The translations under genes and the position numbers were made by a program. From Fischerella muscicola PCC 7414 (GTDB lineage: Bacteria > Cyanobacteriota > Cyanobacteriia > Cyanobacteriales > Nostocaceae): a stretch of 39,217 bases of DNA. Where the stretch lies: contig NZ_AJLK01000005.1 in assembly GCF_000317205.1 (NCBI RefSeq), forward strand, positions 1-39,217, read 5' to 3'. The first letter of the stretch is position 1. The number at the start of each line of letters is the position of its first letter. This document shows, in pieces, positions 196 through 32,339 of the stretch. The notes beneath the pieces were generated by a model, which saw only the letters and a list, made by a program, of their open reading frames with translations, was not told where the DNA came from and did not search any database.

Positions 196-3072
196 TTAAA
201 ACTCTCCCGCTAATGCAGCCACGCACCGTTCACAAATGAGTGGATGTGCTACATTCTCTCCCACATGAATAGAGTAATTCCAACAGCGATCGCATTTTTG
301 CCCGTCTGCTTGTAGTACACCAATCCGCCACTTATCGGCTTGCAAGTTGTATTTTGAACCTTGCAGTTTTTCTGGTGCATCTACCAATTCCACCTGGGAG
401 GTAATGAATAAGTAGCGAAGTTCGTCTACACCGTTGCTGTTGCTAGCATTCAGTGATCTGATTGCACTCAATAATTCTGCATCACTGATGTAGAGCAAGA
501 TTTTTGCTTCTAGGGAGGAACCAATCATTTTTTCTACCCTAGCTTGTTCTAATACCTTGTTGACATCAAGGCGAATCTCCCGTAGTTGTTGCCAAAAAGC
601 TGCTAGTTCTGGGTTATGCCAATTTTGTTCCAATTGTACCCAACCAGATTCAAATACTGATTTATAAGGAGTCTGGTAGGGAAGATACTGCCAGATGTCC
701 TCGGCTAAGTGACATAATACAGGTGCGATCGCTTTTGCTAAGTTTTCCAGTGCATACCAATACACTGTCTGACAACTGCGACGGCGCAAAGCATTGGGAG
801 TACTGATGTACAACCGATCTTTGGCGATATCCATATAAAAGTTGGATAAATCCACCACACAGAAGTTCTGCACTGTTTGGAAAAAGCGGAAGAATTGGAA
901 GCTATCGAATGCTTCAGTAACTTCCTGGAATACCTCTGTCATCCGGTGCAGCATGTATTTGTCTAGCTGCGGTAATTGTTCATAGGGTACAGCATCTTTT
1001 GCTGGATCAAAATCATGCAAATTACCCAGTAAATTCTTGGCGGTGTTACGAATTTTGTTCCGGATATCAACCAGTTGTTTGATGATATTGCTACCCAGGC
1101 GCACATCGGAGGTATAGTCTACCGACGATACCCACAACCGCAACACATCAGCACCGTAAGCCGGCTCTTTTTTCTGATCTTTGCCACCTTCAATGACAAT
1201 AGCCGGATCGACAACATTTCCCAGCGACTTACTCATTTTCCGCCCTTGTTCATCTAGGGCAAAACCATGAGTCAACACGGTTTTGTATGGCGCACAGTTG
1301 TTAACAGCGACACTGGTAAGCAAACTCGACTGGAACCAACCCCGATGCTGATCTGAACCTTCTAAGTACATATCCGCAGGGTAGCGTAATTCTGGACGCT
1401 GCTTGACTACAGATGCCCAAGATGAGCCAGAATCAAACCACACGTCCATCGTATCTGTACCTTTACGGTAGGTGCGGCCATTATTGCGGTATGTTTGGGG
1501 TAGCAACTCCTCAACAGATAATTCCCACCAAGCGTCAGAACCTTTTTCAGCAATAATTGCTTGGACGTGGGCGATGGTTTCCTCATTCAGCAGTGGTTCT
1601 CCACTAGCTTCATCGTAGAATACCGGGATGGGTACACCCCAACTCCGCTGACGGGAGATACACCAGTCAGAACGATCCGCAACCATCGGTGTGATTCTAT
1701 TTTCACCTTGGGCAGGAATCCATTTTACAGAAGCGATCGCTTTGAGTGCTTCTTCGCGAAATCCTTCTACAGAAGCAAACCACTGTTCTGTCGCCCGGAA
1801 AATCGTTGGTTTTTTTGTCCGCCAGTCGTAGGGGTATTTGTGGACGTAGGGTTCTTCTTTCAATAAGGAACCAGCACTAGTCAAAGCATCAATTACCGCC
1901 TGGTTCCCATCACCAAGCACATTCAATCCAGCAAACTGTCCTGCCTCGTCGGTAAAGTTACCATTGTCATCAACTGGGGCTAAAATGGGCAAACCGTAAC
2001 GCTGACCAACAATGTAGTCTTCTTGACCATGCCCAGGGGCAGTGTGGACTAAGCCAGTACCAGATTCAGTAGTAATATAATCGCCACCAATAACAATCGG
2101 ACTTTCACGGTCATACAAGGGATGACGATAAGTAGAATGTTCTAAATCTTTGCCTTTGACTGTGGCTTTTACTGAGAGTGGAGTTTCCAGGGTGGCAGAC
2201 AGGCGTTCTACTAAATCAGCAGCGACAATAAGGTATTTAAACCCTAAACCTTCTCGTGATGAAGTAACTTCTACAACTGCGTAGTTAAGTTCTGGATTCA
2301 ACGCCACTGCCAAGTTACCAGGAATTGTCCAAGGTGTAGTTGTCCAAATTGCTACACCTAAATTTGGTAAAAATTCTGATAAAGCAGGTTTTACCGCCTC
2401 TGCCAAACTCGTCACTGGGAAAGCGGCGTAGATACTGCGAGAAGTATGGCCCTCTGGATATTCCAACTCAGCTTCTGCCAAAGCAGTTTTAGAACTAGGA
2501 CTCCAGTGTACTGGCTTCAAGCCACGATAGATGTAACCTTTTAACACCATCTGTCCGAAAACACCGATTTGGGCTGCTTCGTATTCCGGTGTTAAGGTCA
2601 AATATGGATGTTCCCAATCACCCCAAACTCCGTAGCGTTTGAAACTATCACGCTGTTCATTGACAGCATTTAGGGCAAATTCTTTCGCTTTCTGCCGCAG
2701 TTGTAAAGGTGTCAAATTTTGCCTTTCGGCAGCTTTCATATTCTGTAAAACTTTGAGTTCAATCGGCAAACCATGACAGTCCCAACCAGGAACATAGCGC
2801 ACTTTCCGACCACGTAGCAGTTGGTAGCGATTAATAATATCTTTGAGAATTTTATTTAAGGCATGACCAATATGCAGAGAGCCGTTTGCATAGGGAGGCC
2901 CATCGTGCAATATAAATAATTCGCCGGGATTATTTTGAGATAGGCGATCGTAGATTTTATTCTCTTCCCAAAATTTTTGGATTTCGGGTTCACGCTTGCT
3001 AGCGTTTGCCCGCATATCAAATTTAGTTTTGGGTAGGTTTACAGTATCCTTGTAGCTTCCAGTTTCTGTCAC
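196..3072 (-). CDS. ileS: Isoleucyl-tRNA synthetase, type 1 (housekeeping)
   Basis: Cytoplasmic class I aminoacyl-tRNA synthetase that charges tRNA-Ile with isoleucine. The 958-residue product has the usual length for the bacterial form. The HIGH motif is at about residues 67-70 (LHIGH) within the HDGPPYANG block, and KMSKS is near residue 612. The editing-domain signature TTTPWTIPGNLAVALN lies between them. The C-terminus carries the zinc-binding knuckle of bacterial type 1 enzymes (CDRCWNY followed by CERC). The ATG start fits the start of the alignable protein (MTETGSYKDTVNLPKT). It stands alone, with no convincing operon partner and no T-box in its leader. A second, differently built isoleucyl-tRNA synthetase lies about 10 kb away at 12912-16193, so this is presumably the constitutive enzyme. 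Confidence 0.97.
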   Translation of the reverse strand: MTETGSYKDTVNLPKTKFDMRANASKREPEIQKFWEENKIYDRLSQNNPGELFILHDGPPYANGSLHIGHALNKILKDIINRYQLLRGRKVRYVPGWDCHGLPIELKVLQNMKAAERQNLTPLQLRQKAKEFALNAVNEQRDSFKRYGVWGDWEHPYLTLTPEYEAAQIGVFGQMVLKGYIYRGLKPVHWSPSSKTALAEAELEYPEGHTSRSIYAAFPVTSLAEAVKPALSEFLPNLGVAIWTTTPWTIPGNLAVALNPELNYAVVEVTSSREGLGFKYLIVAADLVERLSATLETPLSVKATVKGKDLEHSTYRHPLYDRESPIVIGGDYITTESGTGLVHTAPGHGQEDYIVGQRYGLPILAPVDDNGNFTDEAGQFAGLNVLGDGNQAVIDALTSAGSLLKEEPYVHKYPYDWRTKKPTIFRATEQWFASVEGFREEALKAIASVKWIPAQGENRITPMVADRSDWCISRQRSWGVPIPVFYDEASGEPLLNEETIAHVQAIIAEKGSDAWWELSVEELLPQTYRNNGRTYRKGTDTMDVWFDSGSSWASVVKQRPELRYPADMYLEGSDQHRGWFQSSLLTSVAVNNCAPYKTVLTHGFALDEQGRKMSKSLGNVVDPAIVIEGGKDQKKEPAYGADVLRLWVSSVDYTSDVRLGSNIIKQLVDIRNKIRNTAKNLLGNLHDFDPAKDAVPYEQLPQLDKYMLHRMTEVFQEVTEAFDSFQFFRFFQTVQNFCVVDLSNFYMDIAKDRLYISTPNALRRRSCQTVYWYALENLAKAIAPVLCHLAEDIWQYLPYQTPYKSVFESGWVQLEQNWHNPELAAFWQQLREIRLDVNKVLEQARVEKMIGSSLEAKILLYISDAELLSAIRSLNASNSNGVDELRYLFITSQVELVDAPEKLQGSKYNLQADKWRIGVLQADGQKCDRCWNYSIHVGENVAHPLICERCVAALAGEF

Positions 3073-12794: not shown

Positions 12795-12932
12795 GGGATT
12801 GGGGAGTGTGAGGGGTATGAGGAGTGTGAGGAGTATGAGGGGTGTGAGGAGAATAACATAGTAACCATTCCTCCTTGTCTCCCTTGTCCTCCTTGTCTCC
12901 CCATCACCCCATCACCCCACCTCCCCATCACT
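12795..12932. repeat. G-rich/C-rich intergenic repeat element with GGAGAATAA core
   Basis: A G-rich arm of GGGGTATGAGGAGTGTGAG-type heptamers (12795-12850) is followed by the core GGAGAATAACATAGTAAC (12848-12865) and then a C-rich arm of CTCCTTGTCTCCC and CCCCATCA words. The same order with a near-identical core occurs at 17930-18090. The C-rich arm enters the 3' end of the type 2 ileS and encodes its last five residues and stop codon. Confidence 0.65.
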
Positions 12933-15900
12933 AGAAATTTTCTGGAGAGTGACTCTCAACTGTATATCGTTGATGTTCACACAGGTGCTGTAGCACGCCT
13001 CCTTGATCTCCGCAAACCGAATCTCCTGGGCTAATACTTCGTTCTTGACTGTTTCCAGATGAGCTTCAAGAGCCTCTAAAAGTGTTCCTGAGGTTTCCAA
13101 CCCAAGACGAATCCGATCTGAAAGATTGAGTCCTGCTTTTTTGCGTATTTCTTGTAATAGACGAATTGCCTCTCGAACCACACCTTCTTGGATTAACTCT
13201 GGTGTGAGTTGAGTATTCAACGCCGCTAAATAGCCGTATTCTTCAATCGCTGCATAACCTTCTGGACTGTTAACTTCAATCAGAAATGCCTCCGGCTCTA
13301 GGCGATAAGATTTTCCATCTAGATGAATAACTGTCTCTTTACCCTCACGGACATTGTGGACAAGTTCGTGGGTATCAATAGTTTCTAGCTTTTTCTTCAA
13401 CGCAGGTACTTGCTTACCAAGACGCTTACCAACCAGAGGCAGATTTGGCTTGATGGTATAATCAACGAAATCTGTTGCTATGTCTAAATAAGTAACTTTT
13501 TTAACATTAAGTTCTTCCTTAAGTTGTTCTTCTAGGCGCTTGAGTCCAGCAATTTCGGCTTGATTGCGAACCCGCACCAAGATTTCCCCTAGCGGTTGCC
13601 GGATCTTAACCTTTGCTGTGGCGCGGGCAGCACGTCCTAACTCTACAATCCGGATCAGCGTCTCCATATCACGCAACAGATTGGTATCGATGAGCGTGGG
13701 ATCGAATTTTTCCCAGTTAGCTAAATGTACTGATTCTGGTTGCTCAGGAAAGACACTCAGTACTAAATTTTGGTAAATGTGTTCGCTCACAAAGGGAGCC
13801 ATGGGAGCCATGAGTTTAGCAACAATGACCATCGTCTCGTAGAGGGTTTTGTAAGCTGAGAGTTTATCGCCATCATGTTCCGACTTCCAGAAACGGCGAC
13901 GATTGCGACGCACATACCAGTTAGAGAGATCGTTGACTACGAAGTCGCGGATTGCTCGGCTAGCACTGGTGGGATCGTAAGCTTCTAATCGCTCAGTTAC
14001 ATCTCGGATCAGTACATTTACTTTAGCTACCAACCAGCGATCAATCTCAGGACGCTCAAAGACAGGAATATCCTGTTGCAAATCTGGCTGGTCGAGATTG
14101 GCGTAAAGCACTAGGAAACTGTAGGTATTCCATAGTGTCATCAAGAAGTCGCGTAATGTATCTTCAACTAGTCCTTGGGAGAAGCGCTTGGTATTCTCTG
14201 GTGGACTGGTGCTGTAAAGATACCATCGCAGCGCATCGGCTCCTTGAACATCAAGGACAGTCCAAGGGTTAACTGTATTTCCCCTTGACTTAGACATCTT
14301 CTCGCCTTTTTCATCCACAATGTGTCCAAGGACGATCGCATTTTTGAAGGCAGGGGAATCCTGAGCGATATGAGCCAGAGAACCGCCAGTATCTGTAAGT
14401 AAGGTGGCAAGGGCATGTAGGCTATAGAACCAGCCCCGTGTCTGATCGATCGCCTCACAAATATAATCGGCAGGAAAATTCCCAGCCAGCACGTCCTGGT
14501 TTTCAAAGGGATAGTGCCATTGGGCATAGGGCATAGCTCCCGACTCAAACCAGACATCAACTGTATAGGGAACGCGCTGAAAACGCTTACCATTTTTCTC
14601 AAAAACAATCTCATCAATGTAAGGACGATGCAAATCTAACTCTGACAAATCCCGCCCTGTCAATTCTGCCAACTCTTTGACACTGCCTACACAGATATAA
14701 TCACTTTCGTCTTCACTCACCCATACAGGCAGAGGCGCACCCCAGTACCGTTCCCGCGATAATGCCCAATCGATATTATTTCTCAACCAATCCCCAAAGC
14801 GACCATCACGGATATATTCGGGATGCCAGTGAATTTTGTTGTTGTTGGCAATAAGCTTGTCTTTGACAGCAGTTGTCCGAATGTACCAACTCTTTTTGGC
14901 ATAGTTGATCAGCGGTGTTCCATCCCGATAGTTGAATGGGTAAGTGTGGTTAATAGTTGTAGCTCGATAAAGCAGCTGTTTGTCTAGCAAATCCGCGATA
15001 ATTTGCCGATCTGCATCCTTGAAAAACTGTCCAGTGTAAGGTCCCTCACCCTCAGGAGCATCAACTAGCTTCACCTGAGGATAAACTTGACCTAGCAAAT
15101 CCACAGAGAAAAGCATCGGCAAGTTGTACTTGCGCCCCAATTCCAGATCCCCATAAGCTGGAGCGATGTGAAGCACGCCTGTTCCTTCATCGACGATCAC
15201 CTGCTCGTCGCTAACTACACGAAACCCTTGGGAAAGGTCTTCTCCTTCCGGTACATACCCCTGTAAAAGAGGCTGATAGCGAAGTCCCACCAGTGCTTCC
15301 CCTGTAAAAGTTTTCAGCGTTCGATAATTCCCCTCTCCGAAGACTTGATTAGCAAGACTACTAGCAAGAATGTAGAGGTCTGTTTGTGAGCGATCGCCTG
15401 CTTGAGGTGGTGCTGCAAACAGCCCATACATAGCATCTGCCCTCACAGCCAGAGCAACGTTAGCAGGGAGCGTCCAAGGGGTAGTAGTCCAAGCCAGCAG
15501 ATAAACTGGCTGTGTCTCATTTTCCAACAAACCACACTTGACAAGTTCACCAGTATATGCAGGAAACTTCGGATAAATAGAAGGGTCTTCTACATCTCGA
15601 TATCCCTGTGCCACTTCATGGTTCGAAAGGCTGGTATTGTTACGCGGACAGTGCCAAGTTGAGCGGTAGTCTTCAAACAAAAGATCCCGTTCCCACAGCG
15701 ACTTCATCAACCACCAGCAAGACTCAATATATTGATTTTCGTAAGTAATATAAGCGTTTTCTAAATCTAGCCAATAACCAATCCGTTCGGTCATCGCCTG
15801 CCAATCCTGGATGCGTTCAAAGACCGATTGTTTACATAGCTCATTAAACTTAGCAATGCCAAAAGCTTCAATATCAGCCTTCTTGGTAAAGCCTAACTTC

Positions 15901-16193
15901 TTCTCAACTTCCAACTCCACAGGTAAACCGTGAGTATCCCATCCGCCCTTGCGCTCAACTCGATAACCTTGCATCGTTTTGTAGCGCAGGAACAAATCTT
16001 TGTAAGCACGGGAAATTACATGATGGATTCCTGGCTTGCCATTAGCAGTTGGCGGCCCTTCATAGAAGACATAATTTCCTTGAGGTGCATCTTTTTCCAC
16101 TGACTTTTGGAAGATGTGGTGCGTTTTCCAAAAGTCGATCACTTCTTGCTCAAGGCTAGGAAAACTAAGGGTTTTTTCAACTTCTTTAAACAT
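12912..16193 (-). CDS. ileS2: Isoleucyl-tRNA synthetase, type 2 (eukaryote-like), second copy
   Basis: A second enzyme that charges tRNA-Ile. At 1093 residues it is longer than the housekeeping copy. It has the type 2 catalytic signature YEGPPTANGKPGIHH, with the HIGH motif as GIHH at about residues 55-58, and KMSKSRGN near residue 631. The editing domain contains AWTTTPWTLPANVALAV. It has the long C-terminal domain of type 2 enzymes instead of the CxxC zinc knuckle of type 1. Type 2 IleRS enzymes are known to be naturally less sensitive to mupirocin. ATG 16193 (MFKEVEKTLSFPSLE) matches the family start; an in-frame GTG at 16208 would add five residues. The last residues (DGEVG) come from a G-rich repeat. 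A T-box leader precedes it, suggesting induction by uncharged tRNA-Ile and acquisition by transfer. Confidence 0.95.
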   Translation of the reverse strand: MFKEVEKTLSFPSLEQEVIDFWKTHHIFQKSVEKDAPQGNYVFYEGPPTANGKPGIHHVISRAYKDLFLRYKTMQGYRVERKGGWDTHGLPVELEVEKKLGFTKKADIEAFGIAKFNELCKQSVFERIQDWQAMTERIGYWLDLENAYITYENQYIESCWWLMKSLWERDLLFEDYRSTWHCPRNNTSLSNHEVAQGYRDVEDPSIYPKFPAYTGELVKCGLLENETQPVYLLAWTTTPWTLPANVALAVRADAMYGLFAAPPQAGDRSQTDLYILASSLANQVFGEGNYRTLKTFTGEALVGLRYQPLLQGYVPEGEDLSQGFRVVSDEQVIVDEGTGVLHIAPAYGDLELGRKYNLPMLFSVDLLGQVYPQVKLVDAPEGEGPYTGQFFKDADRQIIADLLDKQLLYRATTINHTYPFNYRDGTPLINYAKKSWYIRTTAVKDKLIANNNKIHWHPEYIRDGRFGDWLRNNIDWALSRERYWGAPLPVWVSEDESDYICVGSVKELAELTGRDLSELDLHRPYIDEIVFEKNGKRFQRVPYTVDVWFESGAMPYAQWHYPFENQDVLAGNFPADYICEAIDQTRGWFYSLHALATLLTDTGGSLAHIAQDSPAFKNAIVLGHIVDEKGEKMSKSRGNTVNPWTVLDVQGADALRWYLYSTSPPENTKRFSQGLVEDTLRDFLMTLWNTYSFLVLYANLDQPDLQQDIPVFERPEIDRWLVAKVNVLIRDVTERLEAYDPTSASRAIRDFVVNDLSNWYVRRNRRRFWKSEHDGDKLSAYKTLYETMVIVAKLMAPMAPFVSEHIYQNLVLSVFPEQPESVHLANWEKFDPTLIDTNLLRDMETLIRIVELGRAARATAKVKIRQPLGEILVRVRNQAEIAGLKRLEEQLKEELNVKKVTYLDIATDFVDYTIKPNLPLVGKRLGKQVPALKKKLETIDTHELVHNVREGKETVIHLDGKSYRLEPEAFLIEVNSPEGYAAIEEYGYLAALNTQLTPELIQEGVVREAIRLLQEIRKKAGLNLSDRIRLGLETSGTLLEALEAHLETVKNEVLAQEIRFAEIKEACYSTCVNINDIQLRVTLQKISSDGEVG

Positions 16194-16254
16194 AATTACC
16201 GCGTTCACTATCCATGCAGAAATATTGCAGAGTCAGCCAAAGCCAGACTCTACA

Positions 16255-25920: not shown

Positions 25921-28668
25921 ATGTACTATCGGATACTAAGAATCATATTTTTAATAATTTTAGGACTATTCACAGCCTTATCTATCCCTGTTTTGGCAGG
26001 CCAAAGGGTTGTAGGAAATGATAGTGCGATCGCTCAGATATCCAATGCCCAAGTGTTACTGCAACAGGGTATAGAATTTTATCATCATGAACGCTTTGCC
26101 GATGCAATAAATGTCTTTAAGCAGGCATTTGCCAATAGCCAAACAGATCGACTCAAGGGAGCGCTAGTCCTACGCTATCTTTCCTTAGCGTATCAGCACT
26201 TGGGGCAGTGGCAGGAAGCAGAAAAGGCAATCTTGCAAAGTCGCCAATTGCTGGAAAATCAGAAAAATCTAACTAACACCCCAGCCTACTTAGATGTTTT
26301 GGCTAAAACCTTGAATGCCCAAGGCCGTCTGCAATGGATGAAAGGCGATTGGTCTAAGGCTTTAGACAGTTGGAAGCAAGCAGAGGTTAATTACAAAAAA
26401 AACAGTAACAATACGGCTGTCATTGGTATTTTAATTAACCAAATTACCGCCCTACAATGGTTGGGGTTAAACCGTCAAGCACTTGCCTCTTTCAGCCAGC
26501 AGTCCCTAGTGGAATTCCCAACTGTCGAGCAAGTGATCAGACAGATAGAGCAAATGATCCAACAGCAATCAGACCCCAACCTCAAAGCATTGGCATGGCA
26601 AAGTCTAGGCGAAGCTCTCAGACGCATTGGTAATCTCTCACAGTCTGAGGAGGTTTTGCAAAAAAGTTTGCAAGTGGCTCAAAAATACCAACTCGCGAAA
26701 GCCACTAGTTCTGCACTGCTGGAGTTGGGCAATACCAAACGCGCTTTAGCGAACACAGCTCTTGCAATCAATAAATTAGAAGACGCGAAAAAGTATACTC
26801 ATGATGCGATTAATTATTATCAACAAGCTGCTGTATCTCCTCATTTGGGAATCCAGGCTCAACTGAATTTACTTAGCTTCTGGGTAGAAACTGGGGAATG
26901 GTTAGAAGCTACCAAACTGTGGCCCCAAATTCAGCAACCGTTAGCCAGCTTAGCTGCTAGTTCAACAAACATCTATGCCAGACTTAACTTTGCGAGGAGT
27001 CTGACTTGTCTTGTTCCGAATATTGATAAAAATTCACTTTTGCGATTAGGGTGCGATCGCAGCAACAAACTCAGGAAAAACACCTCTGAACAAAGCTTAG
27101 TCACATCTTTTCCCTCATTCCAACAAATCGACCAGATTATAGCTACTACCCTCCAACAAGCTCGTAGTTTACAAGACCCCAGAGCCGAATCCTATGCTTT
27201 AGGGCAACTGGGTGAATTATACGAGCTAAGCGGAAACTTAGCAAAAGCTCAAACCCTGACTCAGCAAGCTGTTCTGCTAGCCGAGCAGATTCAAGCTCCT
27301 GATATTGGCTACCGTTGGCAATGGCAGTTGGGACGTTTATGGGAAAATCAAGGCGAGAGAAAAAAAGCGATCGCTGCCTATACAGATGCAGTTACATCTC
27401 TCAAATCAATTAAGAACGATTTACTCTCCATTAATGCAGATGTACAGTTTTCTTTTCGAGATCACGTAGAACCCATTTACCGCAAGTTAGTTGATTTATT
27501 ATTGGCAACAGAGGGAAGCATTCAACCAACTCCAGAAAATCTCCAGCAAGCTACTGAAACAATTGATTCCCTACGCTTGGCTGAACTAGAAAATTTCTTG
27601 CGCTGTAACCTATCACGAACTGTACAACTGAACCAAGACATTAACAAAGTAGACTCGAAAGCAGCATTTGTTTATCCAATTATTTTGGAGAACCGAATAG
27701 AAATTATTTTCAAACTTCCAGGGCAATCTCTAAAGCACTATGTGACTTCTGTTGAAAAGACTGAAGTAGAGAAAGCAGTCCTAGAATTGCGAGCAAACGT
27801 ATTAAAACGTAACTACCCAGAGGCAGTTATAGAAAAAGCTACACAGCTATATCAATGGTTAATTTTACCCCTAGAACAAGACTTAGCAAATCACAAAGAA
27901 ATCAAAACTTTAGTATTTGTTCTAGATGGAGCTTTGCGAAATATTCCTATGTCAGTTCTTTATGATGGCAAACGGCAAGAGTATCTGATTGAAAAACAGT
28001 ATGCGATTGCCCTAGTTCCAGACTTGCAACTTTTCGATCTTAGACCTTTAAAACGAGAACAATTGCAAGTATTAACAGCTGGAGTTAGTGATAAGAAAGA
28101 AATTGACGGACGTTTATTTGAGCCACTTCCCAATGTGCCAGAGGAGTTGCAGCAAATTGGGAGTGTAGTGCCAGCAAAACCACTCCTAAATCCAAATTTT
28201 ACTAAAGTCAACCTGCAACAGCAAATTAATTCCGGAACTTTCTCTACTGTTCACATTGCTACTCACGGTCAGTTTAGTTCTGACCCCAAAGAAACATATA
28301 TTCTGACTTACGATAAACTCCTCAAAAGCGATGACTTAAATAACTTGCTGCGTGGTAGCAACGAATACTCCAGACGCAGTATTGAGTTACTGGTTCTCAG
28401 TGCTTGTGAGACAGCCCAGGGAGATAACCGAGCCACTTTAGGATTAGCAGGAATAGCTGTACGAGCAGGGGCACGGAGTACTTTAGCGACACTGTGGCAA
28501 GTGAGCGATCGCTCCACAGCAGAAGTGATGGGGCAATTCTATCAGGAGTTAACGAATCCTGAGATGACGAAGGCTGAAGCACTGCATCAGGCGCAATTGG
28601 CGTTGTTTAAGAGATATAAAGCTCCTTACTATTGGGCACCTTATGTTTTAGTTGGAAATTGGCTTTAG
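25921..28668 (+). CDS. TPR and CHAT-domain protein, exported or membrane-anchored
   Basis: A 915-residue protein. The N-terminal hydrophobic segment (IFLIILGLFTALSIPVLAG) is a signal peptide or anchor. Residues about 40-500 are helical tetratricopeptide repeats (for example LLQQGIEFYHHERFADAINVFKQAF, QLGELYELSGNLAKAQTLTQQA, and GERKKAIAAYTDAV). The C-terminal third is a CHAT domain, a caspase-like cysteine peptidase fold. The dyad is visible as His782 (IATHGQFSS) and Cys829 (LSACETAQG), and it ends with the usual GLAGIAVRAGARSTLATLWQVSD and YKAPYYWAPYVLVG blocks. CHAT-TPR proteins are proteases or candidate proteases in signalling and defence. The substrate here is unknown. Its stop overlaps that of the convergent HopA1-family gene by four bases. 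Confidence 0.93.
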   Translation: MYYRILRIIFLIILGLFTALSIPVLAGQRVVGNDSAIAQISNAQVLLQQGIEFYHHERFADAINVFKQAFANSQTDRLKGALVLRYLSLAYQHLGQWQEAEKAILQSRQLLENQKNLTNTPAYLDVLAKTLNAQGRLQWMKGDWSKALDSWKQAEVNYKKNSNNTAVIGILINQITALQWLGLNRQALASFSQQSLVEFPTVEQVIRQIEQMIQQQSDPNLKALAWQSLGEALRRIGNLSQSEEVLQKSLQVAQKYQLAKATSSALLELGNTKRALANTALAINKLEDAKKYTHDAINYYQQAAVSPHLGIQAQLNLLSFWVETGEWLEATKLWPQIQQPLASLAASSTNIYARLNFARSLTCLVPNIDKNSLLRLGCDRSNKLRKNTSEQSLVTSFPSFQQIDQIIATTLQQARSLQDPRAESYALGQLGELYELSGNLAKAQTLTQQAVLLAEQIQAPDIGYRWQWQLGRLWENQGERKKAIAAYTDAVTSLKSIKNDLLSINADVQFSFRDHVEPIYRKLVDLLLATEGSIQPTPENLQQATETIDSLRLAELENFLRCNLSRTVQLNQDINKVDSKAAFVYPIILENRIEIIFKLPGQSLKHYVTSVEKTEVEKAVLELRANVLKRNYPEAVIEKATQLYQWLILPLEQDLANHKEIKTLVFVLDGALRNIPMSVLYDGKRQEYLIEKQYAIALVPDLQLFDLRPLKREQLQVLTAGVSDKKEIDGRLFEPLPNVPEELQQIGSVVPAKPLLNPNFTKVNLQQQINSGTFSTVHIATHGQFSSDPKETYILTYDKLLKSDDLNNLLRGSNEYSRRSIELLVLSACETAQGDNRATLGLAGIAVRAGARSTLATLWQVSDRSTAEVMGQFYQELTNPEMTKAEALHQAQLALFKRYKAPYYWAPYVLVGNWL

Positions 28669-29783
28669 TTTAGCGGCTTATAAATATCTTCAGAGTTAGC
28701 ATTTAGGTAAGGACGTTGCCAATCAATTCCCAGCACAGAGAAATGCTTGAAGATATTATTCATCCTACTCTCGGAAGAATTGTCCCCTTTGTGCCAAACC
28801 TCTAATAAAGCATCAGCTACTATTTGACAGCGATTCATGCCAAAACTCTCTTGGGCAGTAAATTTGCGGTTAGGTTCTTCTGCCAATGCTAATCCTGGTG
28901 CTAATTGCTTGGTGAATAGAGGGATCTGTGGCTGAAAATGTGCTTGATTTTCAGCATAAACTTTTTGAAGTACTTCCCTGAGTACTGGATAGTGACTGCG
29001 CTCAAAGTAGAGGACGCCTGAATCATAGCGCTTGTAGTCGGTAGGGTTATATAAAACTTTAAAGGAGAAGGGAATTTTGATTTTGTTTAGTTGTTGTGTC
29101 AGGTTTGCCATGACTGCAACTGCACCTTCAGAACTGAAATGGAAGTAGATTCTAACTATGGTAGGACGGCTGTATGAGTTGCCGCGGGATTCTGCACCTG
29201 TATCGCTAATTGCTACATAGAAACCAATCTGTACTAGATTGCGAGGCATTAGGATTGACACTAAGTCACCGACACAGGCAGATTGTTCTACTAGTTTTAG
29301 ATGGCGAACGCGATCAATATGCACTGTCAGTTCGCCTTTTGTAACAGCCAAACTTCCATCGCTCTCTTGTCGTAGCACTTGCCAACCAGGGTCAAAGTAG
29401 CCTTGACCGCAATTGCTTTGGTGCAAGCGATCATAAAATATCATGTCAATTCCCAGAAAAGTATTGTTCTCTAAGTTTGGTGGAACAAACTTGTCTGCTG
29501 TCTCAGTTTCGAGAGCTAATACATCTTGTAGATAGCCGTTGTAATAAATGCCGTAAAGAAAGCTTCGCAGTTGTAAGCTCAGATACTTATGCTGCAATTC
29601 TACTGATAGGTGCTGAAAGCGTTGGACTCCAGAAGGAGACAGTTGGAGCGGTTTGAAAGCTGGATGGCTGATGCAGAAGTTAGGTTGGATTTGAATATTA
29701 TCAGCGATGTCTTGCAGTGATACCAGTAAACGGTTGTCCGCATCTGCTGGTAAGTAATTGGGAACAAGATCTAGCAATTGCAT
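28665..29783 (-). CDS. HopA1-family protein, putative lanthipeptide phospho-Ser/Thr lyase
   Basis: A 372-residue protein resembling the family annotated as T3SS effector HopA1. In bacteria outside pathogen effectors, HopA1-like proteins pair with APH-fold kinases in class V lanthipeptide (LxmY type) and thioamitide pathways, where they help convert phosphorylated Ser/Thr to dehydro residues. Family-like features include the N-terminal SVELQHKYLSLQLRSFLYGIYYNG. The central segment is FGIDM-like (NTFLGIDMIFYDRLHQSNCGQGYFDPGWQV). Next comes PTIVRIYFHFSSEGAVAVMANLTQQLNKIKIPFSFKVLYNPTDYKRYDSGVLYFER, and the C-terminal block is QESFGMNRCQIVADALLEVW. The downstream location, 30 bases after the kinase gene on the same strand, strengthens the assignment. 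The lyase role is inference, and catalytic residues were not assigned. It is probably the last gene of the peptide operon. Confidence 0.82.
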   Translation of the reverse strand: MQLLDLVPNYLPADADNRLLVSLQDIADNIQIQPNFCISHPAFKPLQLSPSGVQRFQHLSVELQHKYLSLQLRSFLYGIYYNGYLQDVLALETETADKFVPPNLENNTFLGIDMIFYDRLHQSNCGQGYFDPGWQVLRQESDGSLAVTKGELTVHIDRVRHLKLVEQSACVGDLVSILMPRNLVQIGFYVAISDTGAESRGNSYSRPTIVRIYFHFSSEGAVAVMANLTQQLNKIKIPFSFKVLYNPTDYKRYDSGVLYFERSHYPVLREVLQKVYAENQAHFQPQIPLFTKQLAPGLALAEEPNRKFTAQESFGMNRCQIVADALLEVWHKGDNSSESRMNNIFKHFSVLGIDWQRPYLNANSEDIYKPLN

Positions 29784-29813
29784 ATTCGTAAAGTTGGTGA
29801 CGACTATAAAGAC

Positions 29814-30962
29814 TTAAACAGGTATGCAGCTATCAACAGTAAGTTCCGACTCAGGTAGACCAAACACAGTCAAGATAGACTGTGCTGGGCGACACAGTAG
29901 ACTTTTAGCAACTTGCAGCGTACAGATAGCGACATTACCGAATGCTTTTTGGTATTGAATACTGGCGTGAATGTGTTGAATCAAGGCAAGCCCAGCAGAT
30001 TGCAGCACTAGATGCAAAAAATTAGGACGATAAACTACAATTTCTGGAAACTGCTTTAAGTAAGCCTGTGTTAATGCTGCAATCGAGGGTTGAAGTAACT
30101 GTAAAGGAGTCATTGCCAAACCAAGAGATTCTTCTATACTAATGGTGTTGCTAACCACGAGACTGTTTAACCAAAGTTGTAGATAGCTACAAATCAGGTG
30201 TCCCAAATCAAATGCTGGATCGCCCCAGCTACAAAACTCCCAGTCAATCAAGCGGATGAAGCTCGAGTTCGATAACTCAGGCTGTTCCCAATCTAAATGT
30301 AATAGGATATTGTTTAGCTTTAGGTCGTTGTGAACCAAGCAACAGGAATCAAAGGCACTAACTAATTTTGCGATCGCCTGCCCTAAGCTATCGTAACGCT
30401 GATATAAAGTAAAGAATTTTAACCCATCTACAGGTATTAAACCAAAAGCTTCAGGAGTAATCCGGTCTAAACCGCGAGCTAATTTTGGCGGTTGACTGTT
30501 CGATAAAAAGTTCTGATAGTCCTGTCGATTGAAAGTTGTGCGGTGAATGGTTGCGAGAATGCGACCAATGTTAGAGGCGATCCCTGTTGAAAAAACATTC
30601 TCTTGTCTGTAGAAATCAGCCAAATCACAATAATTGTCCAGATAGTTAAAAACGATAATAGAATCATCAGCATTAAAATGCACAACTTCTGTCAGCCAAG
30701 GACGAAGATAACTAAGTTCTGAAAAGTGTGCTAAAAATTGCTGAAATCGCCATTCATTCGTAAATTTACCTGCGGTATGTCCTCTGGAGTTGTGCGGTTC
30801 TTGCTTCACTATTAACTGATGCCCATCATTCAGCTTCACTAATAAATTGAAATTTTTAGCTGCTTTTAATTCTATTTGTATCTGGTCTTTGTCTTGCTGA
30901 TCACATAGATTATGCTTAGCTAAATACTCCAAGACATTTTGAGAGCTTAACAAAAAGTTCAT
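29814..30962 (-). CDS. APH-fold kinase, putative lanthipeptide Ser/Thr kinase
   Basis: Aminoglycoside phosphotransferase/choline kinase-fold protein of 382 residues. An ATP-anchoring lysine is in LIVKQE. The catalytic loop VHNDLKLNNIL gives His211, Asp213 and Asn218, and the metal-binding motif IDWEFCSWGDPAFDLGHLI has Asp240, so the active site is complete. In class V lanthipeptide clusters a kinase of this fold (LxmK type) phosphorylates core Ser/Thr, and a HopA1 partner eliminates the phosphate. The adjacent HopA1 and precursor genes suggest the same here. ATG 30962 is preferred because GGGG lies eight bases upstream. ATG 30968 and TTG 30980 are alternatives. On the evidence of sequence alone, a small-molecule kinase cannot be excluded. 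Confidence 0.86.
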   Translation of the reverse strand: MNFLLSSQNVLEYLAKHNLCDQQDKDQIQIELKAAKNFNLLVKLNDGHQLIVKQEPHNSRGHTAGKFTNEWRFQQFLAHFSELSYLRPWLTEVVHFNADDSIIVFNYLDNYCDLADFYRQENVFSTGIASNIGRILATIHRTTFNRQDYQNFLSNSQPPKLARGLDRITPEAFGLIPVDGLKFFTLYQRYDSLGQAIAKLVSAFDSCCLVHNDLKLNNILLHLDWEQPELSNSSFIRLIDWEFCSWGDPAFDLGHLICSYLQLWLNSLVVSNTISIEESLGLAMTPLQLLQPSIAALTQAYLKQFPEIVVYRPNFLHLVLQSAGLALIQHIHASIQYQKAFGNVAICTLQVAKSLLCRPAQSILTVFGLPESELTVDSCIPV

Positions 30963-31105
30963 AGTCATTTCCCCGTCCAATTAAAGCTGCGATCGCCAAA
31001 ATATCTCTCTAGTTAAAGGCGATCGCAACTGTATGTAATTTCAAAGTTTAGTAGTTAGTTGAAGAACTGTGAGCGCATAGAAATAACTACTAACTACTAG
31101 CCGAT

Positions 31106-31354
31106 TTATTTAGATGCATTACTGATCGCTCTATAAGCTCCATAAGCACTAAGAACCATTACCGCAGATCTAACAACTCCAATTGCAAAAGCTGCACACT
31201 CCGCCGATGATGCCGCAGCAAAAGCGCAGACTGGCGAACTGCCACCATGAATTGAATCAAAGTCCTCAGAGGTAACTTCATCAAGATAGCTTTCTCGATC
31301 TACAAACAAGCTAATTCCAGTTAAATCAAGATCAGAAATAGCGATAGATGACAT
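31106..31354 (-). CDS. RiPP precursor peptide A (double-glycine leader), 82 aa
   Basis: Small peptide gene with a perfect GGAGG Shine-Dalgarno sequence about seven bases before ATG 31354. The leader (about 38 residues) contains SDLDLTGISLFVDRESYLDE and ends in DSIHGG, the type of site cut by C39 peptidase-containing ABC transporters. The predicted 44-residue core is Ala/Ser-rich and hydrophobic. It has two Cys, at core positions 5 and 15, and the motif SSAEC, followed by an amphipathic stretch FAIGVVRSAVMVLSAYGAYR. The leader is homologous to that of the neighbouring precursor B, and both share the S-S-x-x-C motif. The proposed modification is dehydration and thioether formation by the downstream kinase/HopA1 pair. 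It is 45-50 bases downstream of precursor B on the same strand. Confidence 0.85.
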   Translation of the reverse strand: MSSIAISDLDLTGISLFVDRESYLDEVTSEDFDSIHGGSSPVCAFAAASSAECAAFAIGVVRSAVMVLSAYGAYRAISNASK

Positions 31355-31403
31355 ACTCATCTCCTCCTATTAATTTCATTTAATTAGTGGTTTCAGACTT
31401 AAA

Positions 31404-31634
31404 TTAGTTGGAACGCTGGCTGAGATAATAAGTGTAAGCAGCACCGATAGCCGCGCCAATTAACTCTCCACAAGCACCTGAAGATCTAGCTATAAATCCA
31501 ATTATTACGTATGGAGTAGCACCACCAGAAATACTTCCTATTTCTTCACCAGATAATTCCGTCAAGAAGCTTTCAGAATCAGAAAATAATCCAAAACCAG
31601 CAGGCTTTAAGTCAGTAACTTGAATAGTAGACAT
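31404..31634 (-). CDS. RiPP precursor peptide B (double-glycine leader), 76 aa
   Basis: First gene of the putative peptide operon, with AGGAGG about nine bases before ATG 31634. The leader follows the same pattern as precursor A (TDLKPAGFGLFSDSESFLTE, then LSGEEIGSISGG). The predicted 38-residue core starts ATPYVIIGFIAR, then has SSGAC with the only cysteine at core position 17, and continues GELIGAAIGAAYTYYLSQR with no further Cys. With a single Cys, at most one thioether ring can form. Core Ser and Thr are candidates for dehydration. The helical, hydrophobic core resembles membrane-active peptides. The two precursors probably arose by duplication and divergence. Confidence 0.85.
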   Translation of the reverse strand: MSTIQVTDLKPAGFGLFSDSESFLTELSGEEIGSISGGATPYVIIGFIARSSGACGELIGAAIGAAYTYYLSQRSN

Positions 31635-31709: not shown

Positions 31710-32339
31710 GTGTCTACAACAGAAAATTTAGGTATCAAGCTAGAAACGGAAGAACTTCAGCAGGCCGCAGATAATTTCCGAATTCTGAAGAAGCTCAAAA
31801 GTGCAGAGCAAACCTGGAATTGGTTGCAAAAATATTATCTATCTCTAGATGACTTTGAGGAATTAGTTTATCTTAATGTTCTTTATGCTAAGTTAGCTGA
31901 ATATCTATTTGCAGATAAAGTTGAGCCATTTTTTATTGAGAATAAACTTAATTACATAGGTGCATATATTTATGAAGCTATTTTGAATGATGAAGATTTG
32001 GCAATTGAGCTTTTTTACGCAATTAATGAAGGTGAGATTAGTTTTTATCAAATTGTTCATCAATACATTCTCGAACCAGAATTACGTCGCTCTGGTGGAT
32101 ATCAGGGAATGCGACTTCGTAAAGATTTGAAACCAGAAATTTCTGCTGCTGTCTTTGCTGCCAAACCACCACAACTTCTTAAGCCTATTGTAACTTCTAA
32201 AGGAATTCATTTGATTTTAGTAGAGGAATTAGTTCAGCCAAAATTGGATGATAAGCTTCGCTCTCAAATCCTTTCAGATTTGTTTTCTCAATGGTTAAAA
32301 AAACAAATTAAGGAAGTGGAAGCAAGACTAAAGTTATAA
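31710..32339 (+). CDS. Peptidyl-prolyl cis-trans isomerase, parvulin type, probably 5'-truncated
   Basis: Homologous to the cyanobacterial PpiC-like isomerases that often sit in peptide or bacteriocin export loci. Diagnostic blocks are LSLDDFEELVYLNVLYAKLAEYLFADKVEPFF, then LAIELFYAINEGEISFYQIVHQYI and the parvulin core ELRRSGGYQGM with AVFAAKPPQLLKPIVTSKGIHLILVEE. The open frame starts at GTG 31710, and a TAA stop lies four codons earlier. Family members normally carry about 40 more N-terminal residues. In the next frame the sequence just upstream reads VITAR, and adding one A in the AAA run before 31710 would continue it as KIVSTTENLGIK, suggesting a frameshift. It may be a recent pseudogene or a shortened but working protein. 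It is divergent from the precursor operon. Confidence 0.78.
   Translation: MSTTENLGIKLETEELQQAADNFRILKKLKSAEQTWNWLQKYYLSLDDFEELVYLNVLYAKLAEYLFADKVEPFFIENKLNYIGAYIYEAILNDEDLAIELFYAINEGEISFYQIVHQYILEPELRRSGGYQGMRLRKDLKPEISAAVFAAKPPQLLKPIVTSKGIHLILVEELVQPKLDDKLRSQILSDLFSQWLKKQIKEVEARLKL

What the first reader, a model, noticed from the sequence alone, without database searches (positions are those of the whole stretch)
28665..31634. Putative class V-like lanthipeptide operon in a cyanobacterium
Four co-directional genes encode two small peptides with homologous leaders ending in GG, a complete APH-fold kinase (His211/Asp213/Asn218, Asp240) and a HopA1-family protein. A kinase plus HopA1 pair is established for class V lanthipeptides (LxmK/LxmY type) and occurs in thioamitide pathways, but no YcaO gene is present, so dehydration plus thioether formation is the simplest reading. 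I see no LxmX homologue, LanM/LanB/LanC, transporter or protease. The system may be a minimal or split pathway, with export by a C39-type transporter elsewhere. I do not know of a characterised cyanobacterial member.
Basis: partly seen in the sequence, partly recalled or inferred. Interest (0 to 1): 0.92.

Follow-up and report, generated by a model that had tools for sequence, protein, structure and literature searches.

The report
Cyanobacterial two-peptide kinase–lyase RiPP operon
A cyanobacterium carries two small peptide genes next to a kinase and a lyase that probably turn serines and threonines into reactive residues which staple the peptides with sulfur bridges; the gene family was already predicted in print, but I found no known product, and this copy gives a precise chemical prediction to test.

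Summary
Four minus-strand genes encode two homologous double-glycine-leader peptides, an APH-fold kinase and a HopA1-family protein. Their structure models best match LxmK and LxmY of the lexapeptide dehydratase, the lyase model only weakly; the catalytic residues are kept. The set belongs to a cyanobacterial RiPP family already predicted in print (Family 1A, PMC8153245; probably also type-B, PMC9486802); my searches found no characterised product.

'Lanthipeptide' does not describe the family: 211 of 253 double-glycine cores near such pairs lack cysteine. The window is in the minority that fits. All three core cysteines sit in Ser-Ser-X-X-Cys (shuffle frequency 4e-5), the arrangement from which a lanthionine forms without enzyme in rosin (PMC12291118). 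The genome shows no LanC-like or YcaO match, but has a C39 transporter with HlyD and PpiC partners on another contig. I predict a two-peptide, cyclase-free lanthipeptide exported in trans.

A sister clade (49 of 153 HopA1 genes surveyed, one in the window genome) had none of these peptides nearby, and its lyase never keeps the catalytic lysine. It often lies among phylloquinone genes and deserves its own study.

The parts
31404..31634 (-). pepA: precursor peptide, 76 aa from ATG (a TTG lies one codon upstream); leader ends ...EEIGSISGG; core of 38 aa with one Cys, in Ser-Ser-Gly-Ala-Cys, and overlapping GxxxG motifs
31106..31360 (-). pepB: precursor peptide, 84 aa; leader ends ...EDFDSIHGG; core of 44 aa with two Cys, both in Ser-Ser-X-X-Cys (SSPVC at core 1-5, SSAEC at core 11-15)
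29814..30962 (-). APH-fold peptide kinase (LxmK-like), 382 aa; K53, E70, H211-x-D213-xxxx-N218 and D240 conserved
   Evidence: PF01636; NF038156 below cut-off; model pLDDT 73.9, best Foldseek match 9dk3_A LxmK E 8.8e-12, TM 0.68/0.75; residues
28665..29783 (-). HopA1-family phospho-Ser/Thr lyase (LxmY/CaoY-like), 372 aa; R211, K242, R252, Y259 correspond to CaoY R187, K219, R229, Y236
   Evidence: PF17914 E 4.6e-61; LxmY chain 9dk1_B phmmer E 1.5e-9; Foldseek 9dk2_B E 9.9e-9 but TM only 0.27/0.30 on a low-confidence model; residues
31046..31102 (-). imperfect hairpin in the gap between pepB and the kinase gene, possibly separating precursor from enzyme expression
   Evidence: fold -13.1 kcal/mol, z -1.68, 10 of 200 shuffles fold as well: weak
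31710..32339 (+). divergent PpiC-type (TIGR04500-like) protein, 209 aa; starts about 35 residues late against its C74 homologue; the other 51 members of its cluster have 244-301 aa; probably a truncated relic of an export-locus gene
   Evidence: PF00639; TIGR04500 58.6 bits, below cut-off; lengths; 59% identical over 202 aa to the 261 aa PpiC on contig C74

Best explanation
A reduced, two-peptide RiPP operon of the cyanobacterial kinase-HopA1 family. The kinase phosphorylates Ser/Thr in the cores of PepA and PepB, and the HopA1 lyase removes the phosphate to give Dha/Dhb. No cyclase was found. In this strain each core cysteine adds to a dehydroalanine four or three residues upstream within Ser-Ser-X-X-Cys, giving one lanthionine in PepA and up to two in PepB without enzyme; these would staple otherwise hydrophobic helices. 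A C39-peptidase ABC transporter with HlyD and PpiC partners, encoded on contig C74, cuts after Gly-Gly and exports the pair, perhaps as a two-peptide bacteriocin. Shown by computation: gene content, families, catalytic residues, the motif excess, no LanC-like or YcaO match in the genome, and presence of the export set. Inferred: enzyme activity, ring formation, helical cores, use of that transporter, and biological role.
For: Pfam cut-offs met for both enzymes. The best structural match of each enzyme model is the matching chain of the LxmKY complex. R187, K219 and R229, tested by mutation in CaoY, and Y236, conserved there (PMC9486802), have counterparts, mapped through the LxmY alignment. 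GG-leader peptides lie near 57 of 59 and 39 of 45 HopA1 genes outside clade B, and near 0 of 33 and 0 of 16 in clade B. [ST][ST]xxC occurs in 12 of 31 Cys-bearing cores of the first set against 1.88 expected (0 of 2000 shuffles reach it). Over both sets, 17 of 79 Cys have [ST][ST] starting at offset -4 against 1-5 at each other tested offset; all three window Cys do (4e-5 by shuffle). RosK-RosY suffices for the rosin Lan6-10 ring, which forms spontaneously from Dha-Dhb-X-X-Cys (PMC12291118 section 8). Own genome: no LanC-like and no YcaO match; a C39-ABC 70% identical to that of a homologous cluster, beside HlyD and PpiC genes.
Against: Most relatives cannot make lanthionine: 211 of 253 cores lack Cys, and two close relatives of the window in the tree (L048, L050) have no core Cys. 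Taking one core per locus weakens the motif test: 6.29 of 24 observed on average, shuffled mean 1.72, and 8% of shuffles reach the lowest observed draw of 4. Some motif cores are paralogues or homologues (L051, L054), so counts are not independent. The kinase is far below the LxmK cut-off. The HopA1 model is poor (pLDDT 59) and its match to LxmY is not a good superposition (TM 0.27-0.31, rmsd 17 A). The HopA1 R-to-K spacing is 31, against 32 in LxmY. The window lacks the AKR-like and downstream PpiC genes of relatives L047, L048 and L050, so it may be degenerate. Nothing here shows expression.
Confidence: 0.57

Rival explanations
1. Dehydration without thioethers: the pair makes linear Dha/Dhb-bearing peptides, and the few Cys stay free or form disulfides. 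This is the family's general chemistry and the window is no exception.
For: 211 of 253 cores have no Cys. The window genome has no LanC-like match. None of the ten neighbour proteins of L009 and L012 that I ran through Pfam and NCBIfam looks like a cyclase; this was not a systematic search of all loci.
Against: The [ST][ST]xxC excess is specific to offset -4, and all three window Cys sit in it. Such a dehydrated segment cyclises spontaneously in rosin.
Confidence: 0.25
2. A decaying, silent relic: a peptide-kinase-HopA1 piece of a larger cluster that lost its AKR-like, PpiC and transporter genes beside a truncated PpiC.
For: Truncated divergent PpiC. Relatives L047, L048 and L050 carry AKR-like and PpiC genes downstream. 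The two other genomes of the genus have only a clade B pair.
Against: All four reading frames are intact, catalytic residues are kept, AGGAGG stretches precede both peptide genes (read by eye), and an export set remains in the genome. L059, in the same part of the tree, also lacks the AKR-like gene in its short contig, so the gene may be dispensable.
Confidence: 0.1
3. An unmodified class IIb-like two-peptide bacteriocin; the kinase and HopA1 act on something else.
For: A related peptide (L009) passes TIGR03949 class IIb at 28.9 bits against 21.5, and PF10439 at its cut-off. The PepA core has GxxxG repeats, which I recall as typical of class IIb.
Against: Window PepA misses TIGR03949 (13.1 bits) and PepB has no match. 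Leader peptides lie near the catalytic-Lys pairs and near none of the clade B pairs.
Confidence: 0.04
4. A thioamitide or an AviCys-type class Va lanthipeptide.
For: Both use kinase-HopA1 pairs (PMC8153245, PMC12291118).
Against: No YcaO match in the genome. The window core Cys are not near the core C-termini. No LanD-like flavoprotein domain or second APH-like kinase among the flanking proteins run through Pfam. The only other homologue of the window kinase found in the genome is the clade B one. LanD and LanX themselves were not searched genome-wide.
Confidence: 0.02

Closest known systems
Family 1A HopA1-associated precursor peptides of Cyanobacteria (Eyles et al. 2021, PMC8153245, section 16)
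   Same: Cyanobacterial; HopA1 next to a phosphotransferase; conserved leader ending in GG; several non-identical precursors; cores variable
   Different: The window has only two peptides, both with Ser-Ser-X-X-Cys cores, whereas that paper reports no conserved Ser, Thr or Cys in the family. The paper's supplements were not seen, so accession-level identity is not checked
Type-B putative class V LanA peptides (Liang et al. 2022, PMC9486802, parts of section 4 and passages read)
   Same: Cyanobacterial Cys-containing ORFs beside LanK/LanY pairs
   Different: That set was filtered for Cys; most precursors near such pairs here have none. Figure S6 not seen
Lexapeptide LxmKY and cacaoidin CaoKY (class Va dehydratases)
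   Same: Kinase fold, catalytic residues, stand-alone kinase plus lyase
   Different: GG leader with C39 export in trans, no LanD/LanX seen beside the pair, 17-20% identity to LxmK and LxmY in the structural alignments
Rosins (class Va, PMC12291118; passages and section 8 read)
   Same: Cys preceded by two dehydratable residues at -4 and -3; that ring forms without cyclase
   Different: Rosins also carry AviMeCys made with RosD and RosX; neither is seen here

Membership tests
Family 1A cyanobacterial HopA1 RiPPs (PMC8153245) | HopA1 protein with adjacent phosphotransferase | tested here: met
Family 1A cyanobacterial HopA1 RiPPs (PMC8153245) | Short precursors with conserved leader and double glycine, in a cyanobacterium | tested here: met
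   leader shared with loci of named cyanobacteria; the window genome itself is unnamed
Family 1A cyanobacterial HopA1 RiPPs (PMC8153245) | Falls in the paper's peptide network at 40% identity | not tested
Class V lanthipeptides | Stand-alone LanK (PF01636) and LanY (PF17914) | tested here: met
   structures
Class V lanthipeptides | (Methyl)lanthionine in the product | not testable with these tools
   needs mass spectrometry; core Cys and SSxxC present
Class Va lanthipeptides | LanD Cys decarboxylase and LanX beside the pair | tested here: not met
   no flavoprotein or further APH-like domain among the flanking proteins run through Pfam; only one further homologue of the window kinase in the genome, in clade B. 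Not searched genome-wide with LanD or LanX models
Class Vb lanthipeptides | LanC cyclase | tested here: not met
   PF05147: no match in the own genome
NCBIfam NF038156 (LxmK equivalog) | Score at or above 315 bits | tested here: not met
   80.8 bits
Thioamitides | YcaO gene | tested here: not met
   PF02624: no match in the own genome
Class IIb two-peptide bacteriocins (TIGR03949) | Model cut-off 21.5 bits | tested here: not met
   window PepA 13.1 bits, PepB no match; a relative, L009, passes

The most novel reading that the evidence does not exclude
A minimal lanthipeptide pathway in which two enzymes, a kinase and a lyase, are the whole modification machinery, ring placement being written in the substrate as Ser-Ser-X-X-Cys, and yielding a helix-stapled two-peptide bacteriocin. 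It would sit inside a much larger cyanobacterial family whose usual Cys-free products are dehydropeptides and not lanthipeptides at all.
Probability: 0.4. Interest if true: 0.65.

Novelty: new member of a known kind. Interest (0 to 1): 0.5.

Why it matters
A large cyanobacterial RiPP family has been predicted from sequence since 2021, and I found no characterised product (searches listed in the full report). This member has short cores, three cysteines in a motif with known spontaneous chemistry, only two modification genes, and exact mass predictions, so one co-expression experiment could show what the family's enzyme pair does. The survey also separates two clades: one with the catalytic lysine and precursors, one with neither. 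That warns against calling every cyanobacterial HopA1–kinase pair a RiPP cluster.

Tried and rejected
Class Vb and LanM/LanL/LanKC routes rejected because the genome has no LanC-like match (that the latter enzymes bear such a domain is recalled). Thioamitide route rejected (no YcaO match). AKR-like partner in trans: only a 30% identical aldo/keto reductase on C11. The AKR-like proteins of relatives align poorly where I recall the AKR catalytic tetrad; not pursued. Promoter and terminator scans did not exceed shuffles. The hairpin between pepB and the kinase gene is weak. The HopA1 fold from 9 sequences is low confidence, so only the ranking of its match was used. A profile search of the kinase against the PDB reached LxmK only at E 0.0011, below three other kinases.

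Errors and limits of mine: cluster 8 was labelled menF; it is a DUF815 ATPase. The real isochorismate synthase is cluster 12. Men-gene counts were redone; those are not used. Of the 88 places, the own two were already held and 82 others were fetched; left out were two full-length hits in G005, one in G035 and one fragment in G009. Of the places, 60 stretches chosen by me from genomes not were fetched, not all. Many stretches are cut by contig ends. The leader profile was trained on peptides of the first set, so only the second set tests it independently. One first-set match (L081) does not look like a leader peptide, so 57 of 59 is an upper figure. Of the peptides found, 11 of 155 and 7 of 116 were dropped from the core counts because my rule found no Gly-Gly-like site near the end of the leader match; several of the 11 do contain a Gly-Gly further on.
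Full report
CHECK. The four genes are real and lie on the minus strand in the order pepA, pepB, kinase, hopA1. HopA1 passes PF17914 by a wide margin and the kinase passes PF01636. NCBIfam's LxmK model recognises the kinase as a distant relative only (80.8 bits against 315); HopA1 has no NCBIfam match. The two peptides are related to each other, and a search of the own genome with PepA found no third one below E 0.8. The hopA1 stop overlaps the stop of the convergent plus-strand TPR-CHAT gene by four bases.

ENZYMES. AlphaFold models were compared with the PDB. The kinase model (pLDDT 73.9) best matches LxmK (9dk3_A, E 8.8e-12, TM 0.68/0.75), followed closely by other APH-fold kinases. The HopA1 model is weak (pLDDT 59); its only two matches under E 0.001 are LxmY chains, but the superposition is poor (TM 0.27-0.31). 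The phmmer alignment with LxmY (E 1.5e-9) places window R211, K242, R252 and Y259 at CaoY R187, K219, R229 and Y236. In CaoY, K219A lost and R187A nearly lost elimination, and R229Q was inefficient; Y236 is a conserved counterpart of an active-site residue (PMC9486802, section 4 parts 1 and 2 of 3). The R-to-K spacing is 31 here and 32 in LxmY; the other two spacings agree. A working kinase–lyase dehydratase is the natural reading, but it is inferred.

SURVEY. I fetched 80 stretches around hits of the window HopA1 in the relatives (HopA1 in 40 of 60 genomes, the own one included), and added the own second pair and eight genome-contig loci from named cyanobacteria: 92 pairs with the window. A second set of 60 stretches came from the phylum survey, where HopA1 occurs in 56 of 386 genomes: 61 HopA1 genes, 59 with a kinase just upstream. 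A tree of the first set has a clade, here called B, of 33 pairs (support 1.0); in a HopA1 tree of both sets, 16 of the 61 new ones join it (support 0.985). Outside B the lysine is kept in 55 of 59 and 44 of 45. Inside B it is never kept (Q 29, E 2, H 2; then Q 13, E 3). GG-leader peptides lie near 57 of 59 and 39 of 45 genes outside B, and near 0 of 33 and 0 of 16 in B. The window pair is outside B, close to L047, L048 and L050; those three clusters have an AKR-like and a PpiC gene downstream, which the window lacks. Of the 59 non-B pairs of the first set, 38 have C39-ABC- or HlyD-cluster genes in the stretch, 39 a PpiC and 16 the AKR-like gene; 3 of 45 in the second set have the AKR-like gene. 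The ABC and HlyD clusters also gathered some unrelated transporters, so 38 is an upper figure.

PRECURSORS. 271 leader-profile matches were found and 253 gave a core after a Gly-Gly-like site. 211 of the 253 cores have no Cys. Thioethers therefore cannot be the family's common product. Among the 42 Cys-bearing cores, two Ser/Thr stand at -4 and -3 before 17 of 79 Cys, against 1-5 for such a pair at each other tested offset. In the first set, 12 of 31 cores have the motif against 1.88 by shuffling. With one core per locus the excess remains on average (6.29 of 24 against 1.72) but is weaker. The motif is present in 8 of the 24 loci that have any Cys-bearing core. The window is the clearest case: its only PepA Cys and both PepB Cys are in SSxxC. 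The motif recurs with recognisable core similarity in L051, L054 and L047, and in L181, from a different family, as a two-peptide pair.

CHEMISTRY. In rosin biosynthesis the RosK-RosY pair alone gives the Lan6-10 ring, and a synthetic dehydrated peptide closes it spontaneously; the authors tie this to Dha-Dhb-X-X-Cys (PMC12291118 section 8). The window cores have the same spacing, with Ser-Ser in place of Ser-Thr. The genome has no LanC-like match, so substrate-directed closure is the economical route to a ring.

EXPORT. The best C39-ABC homologue (70% identical) is on contig C74, followed by HlyD and a 261 aa PpiC and preceded by a 251 aa PpiC; small GG peptides of another type lie downstream. 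The window's own PpiC gene is 59% identical to the C74 one and starts about 35 residues late. I infer that export is in trans. The genome has further C39-like ABC transporters, so the partner is not certain.

LITERATURE. Eyles et al. 2021 (PMC8153245; section 16 read whole, other passages by search) describe Family 1A: 570 peptides in 183 clusters, exclusive to Cyanobacteria, with GG leader and variable cores without conserved Ser, Thr or Cys. Liang et al. 2022 (PMC9486802; outline, parts 1 and 2 of section 4 and passages) mention cyanobacterial type-B LanA candidates. PMC12291118 (passages and section 8) describes classes Va and Vb. PMC12141560 (passages) identifies 9dk1 as LxmKY. The searches listed no paper that I recognised as describing a characterised cyanobacterial product of such a pair; HopA1 with Nostoc and HopA1 with phylloquinone gave 0 papers. 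Only listings and abstract beginnings were seen except where stated, searches listed 20 of 413 and 15 of 239 papers, and most subscription journals are not in the library.

VERDICT. The set is a new member of an already predicted family.

Noticed in passing
L005 (own contig C65:44772-47105) and clade B loci such as L063, L068, L078: A sister kinase-HopA1 clade without GG peptides nearby (0 of 33 and 0 of 16) whose lyase never keeps the catalytic Lys (Q, E or H). It is present in 33 of 36 same-family genomes (two hits in G005, one of the three without it, were not fetched). 24 of 33 have menA, menC, menE or isochorismate synthase genes in the stretch, against 0 of 59 for the other pairs; TerB_C, BrxC/D-like and DUF815 genes (one representative each identified) often lie upstream. 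In the three genomes of the window's genus the neighbour is cobS instead. Function unknown; perhaps a kinase with a non-eliminating partner.
   Followed up: partly
L009:11119-12132 and 15 further loci of the first set: A divergent aldo/keto-reductase-like gene directly after hopA1, usually followed by a PpiC gene, in 16 of 59 non-B pairs of the first set and 3 of 45 of the second. The canonical AKR tetrad, recalled, seems not to be kept.
   Followed up: partly
L052:4202-6497, L055:3749-6039, L120:6910-9261: Divergent pairs, two of them second tandem copies, whose kinases lack the HxDxxxxN motif; in L052 and L120 the lyase Lys is Glu. Possibly regulatory or inactive partners.
   Followed up: no
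L009:13288-16156, L051, L054, L062, L074: A nif11-class radical SAM maturase gene (TIGR04103, 849 bits against 725 for the L009 copy) sits near five kinase-HopA1 clusters, with nif11-like peptides by eye.
   Followed up: no
G334:C119:15837-16343, G067:C1:4504783-4505313: HopA1 domains in open frames of 861 and 834 aa in more distant cyanobacteria, perhaps fusions with other domains.
   Followed up: no
window 196-3072 and 12912-16208: Two class I tRNA synthetases (PF00133), both isoleucyl-type by eye; the first has the zinc finger of FPG and IleRS, the second a DUF5915 end. Two isoleucyl-tRNA synthetase genes of different types so close together is worth a look.
   Followed up: partly
L139:9716-10767: Small GG-type peptides with Asp/Lys/Tyr-rich tails downstream of the C74 transporter, unlike PepA and PepB (by eye).
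   Followed up: no
window 28665-29783: Weak phmmer similarity (E 0.02-0.04) of the HopA1 protein, residues 172-293, to a PDB molecule named Broad-range thermal receptor 1 (8ymw and others); may be chance.
   Followed up: no
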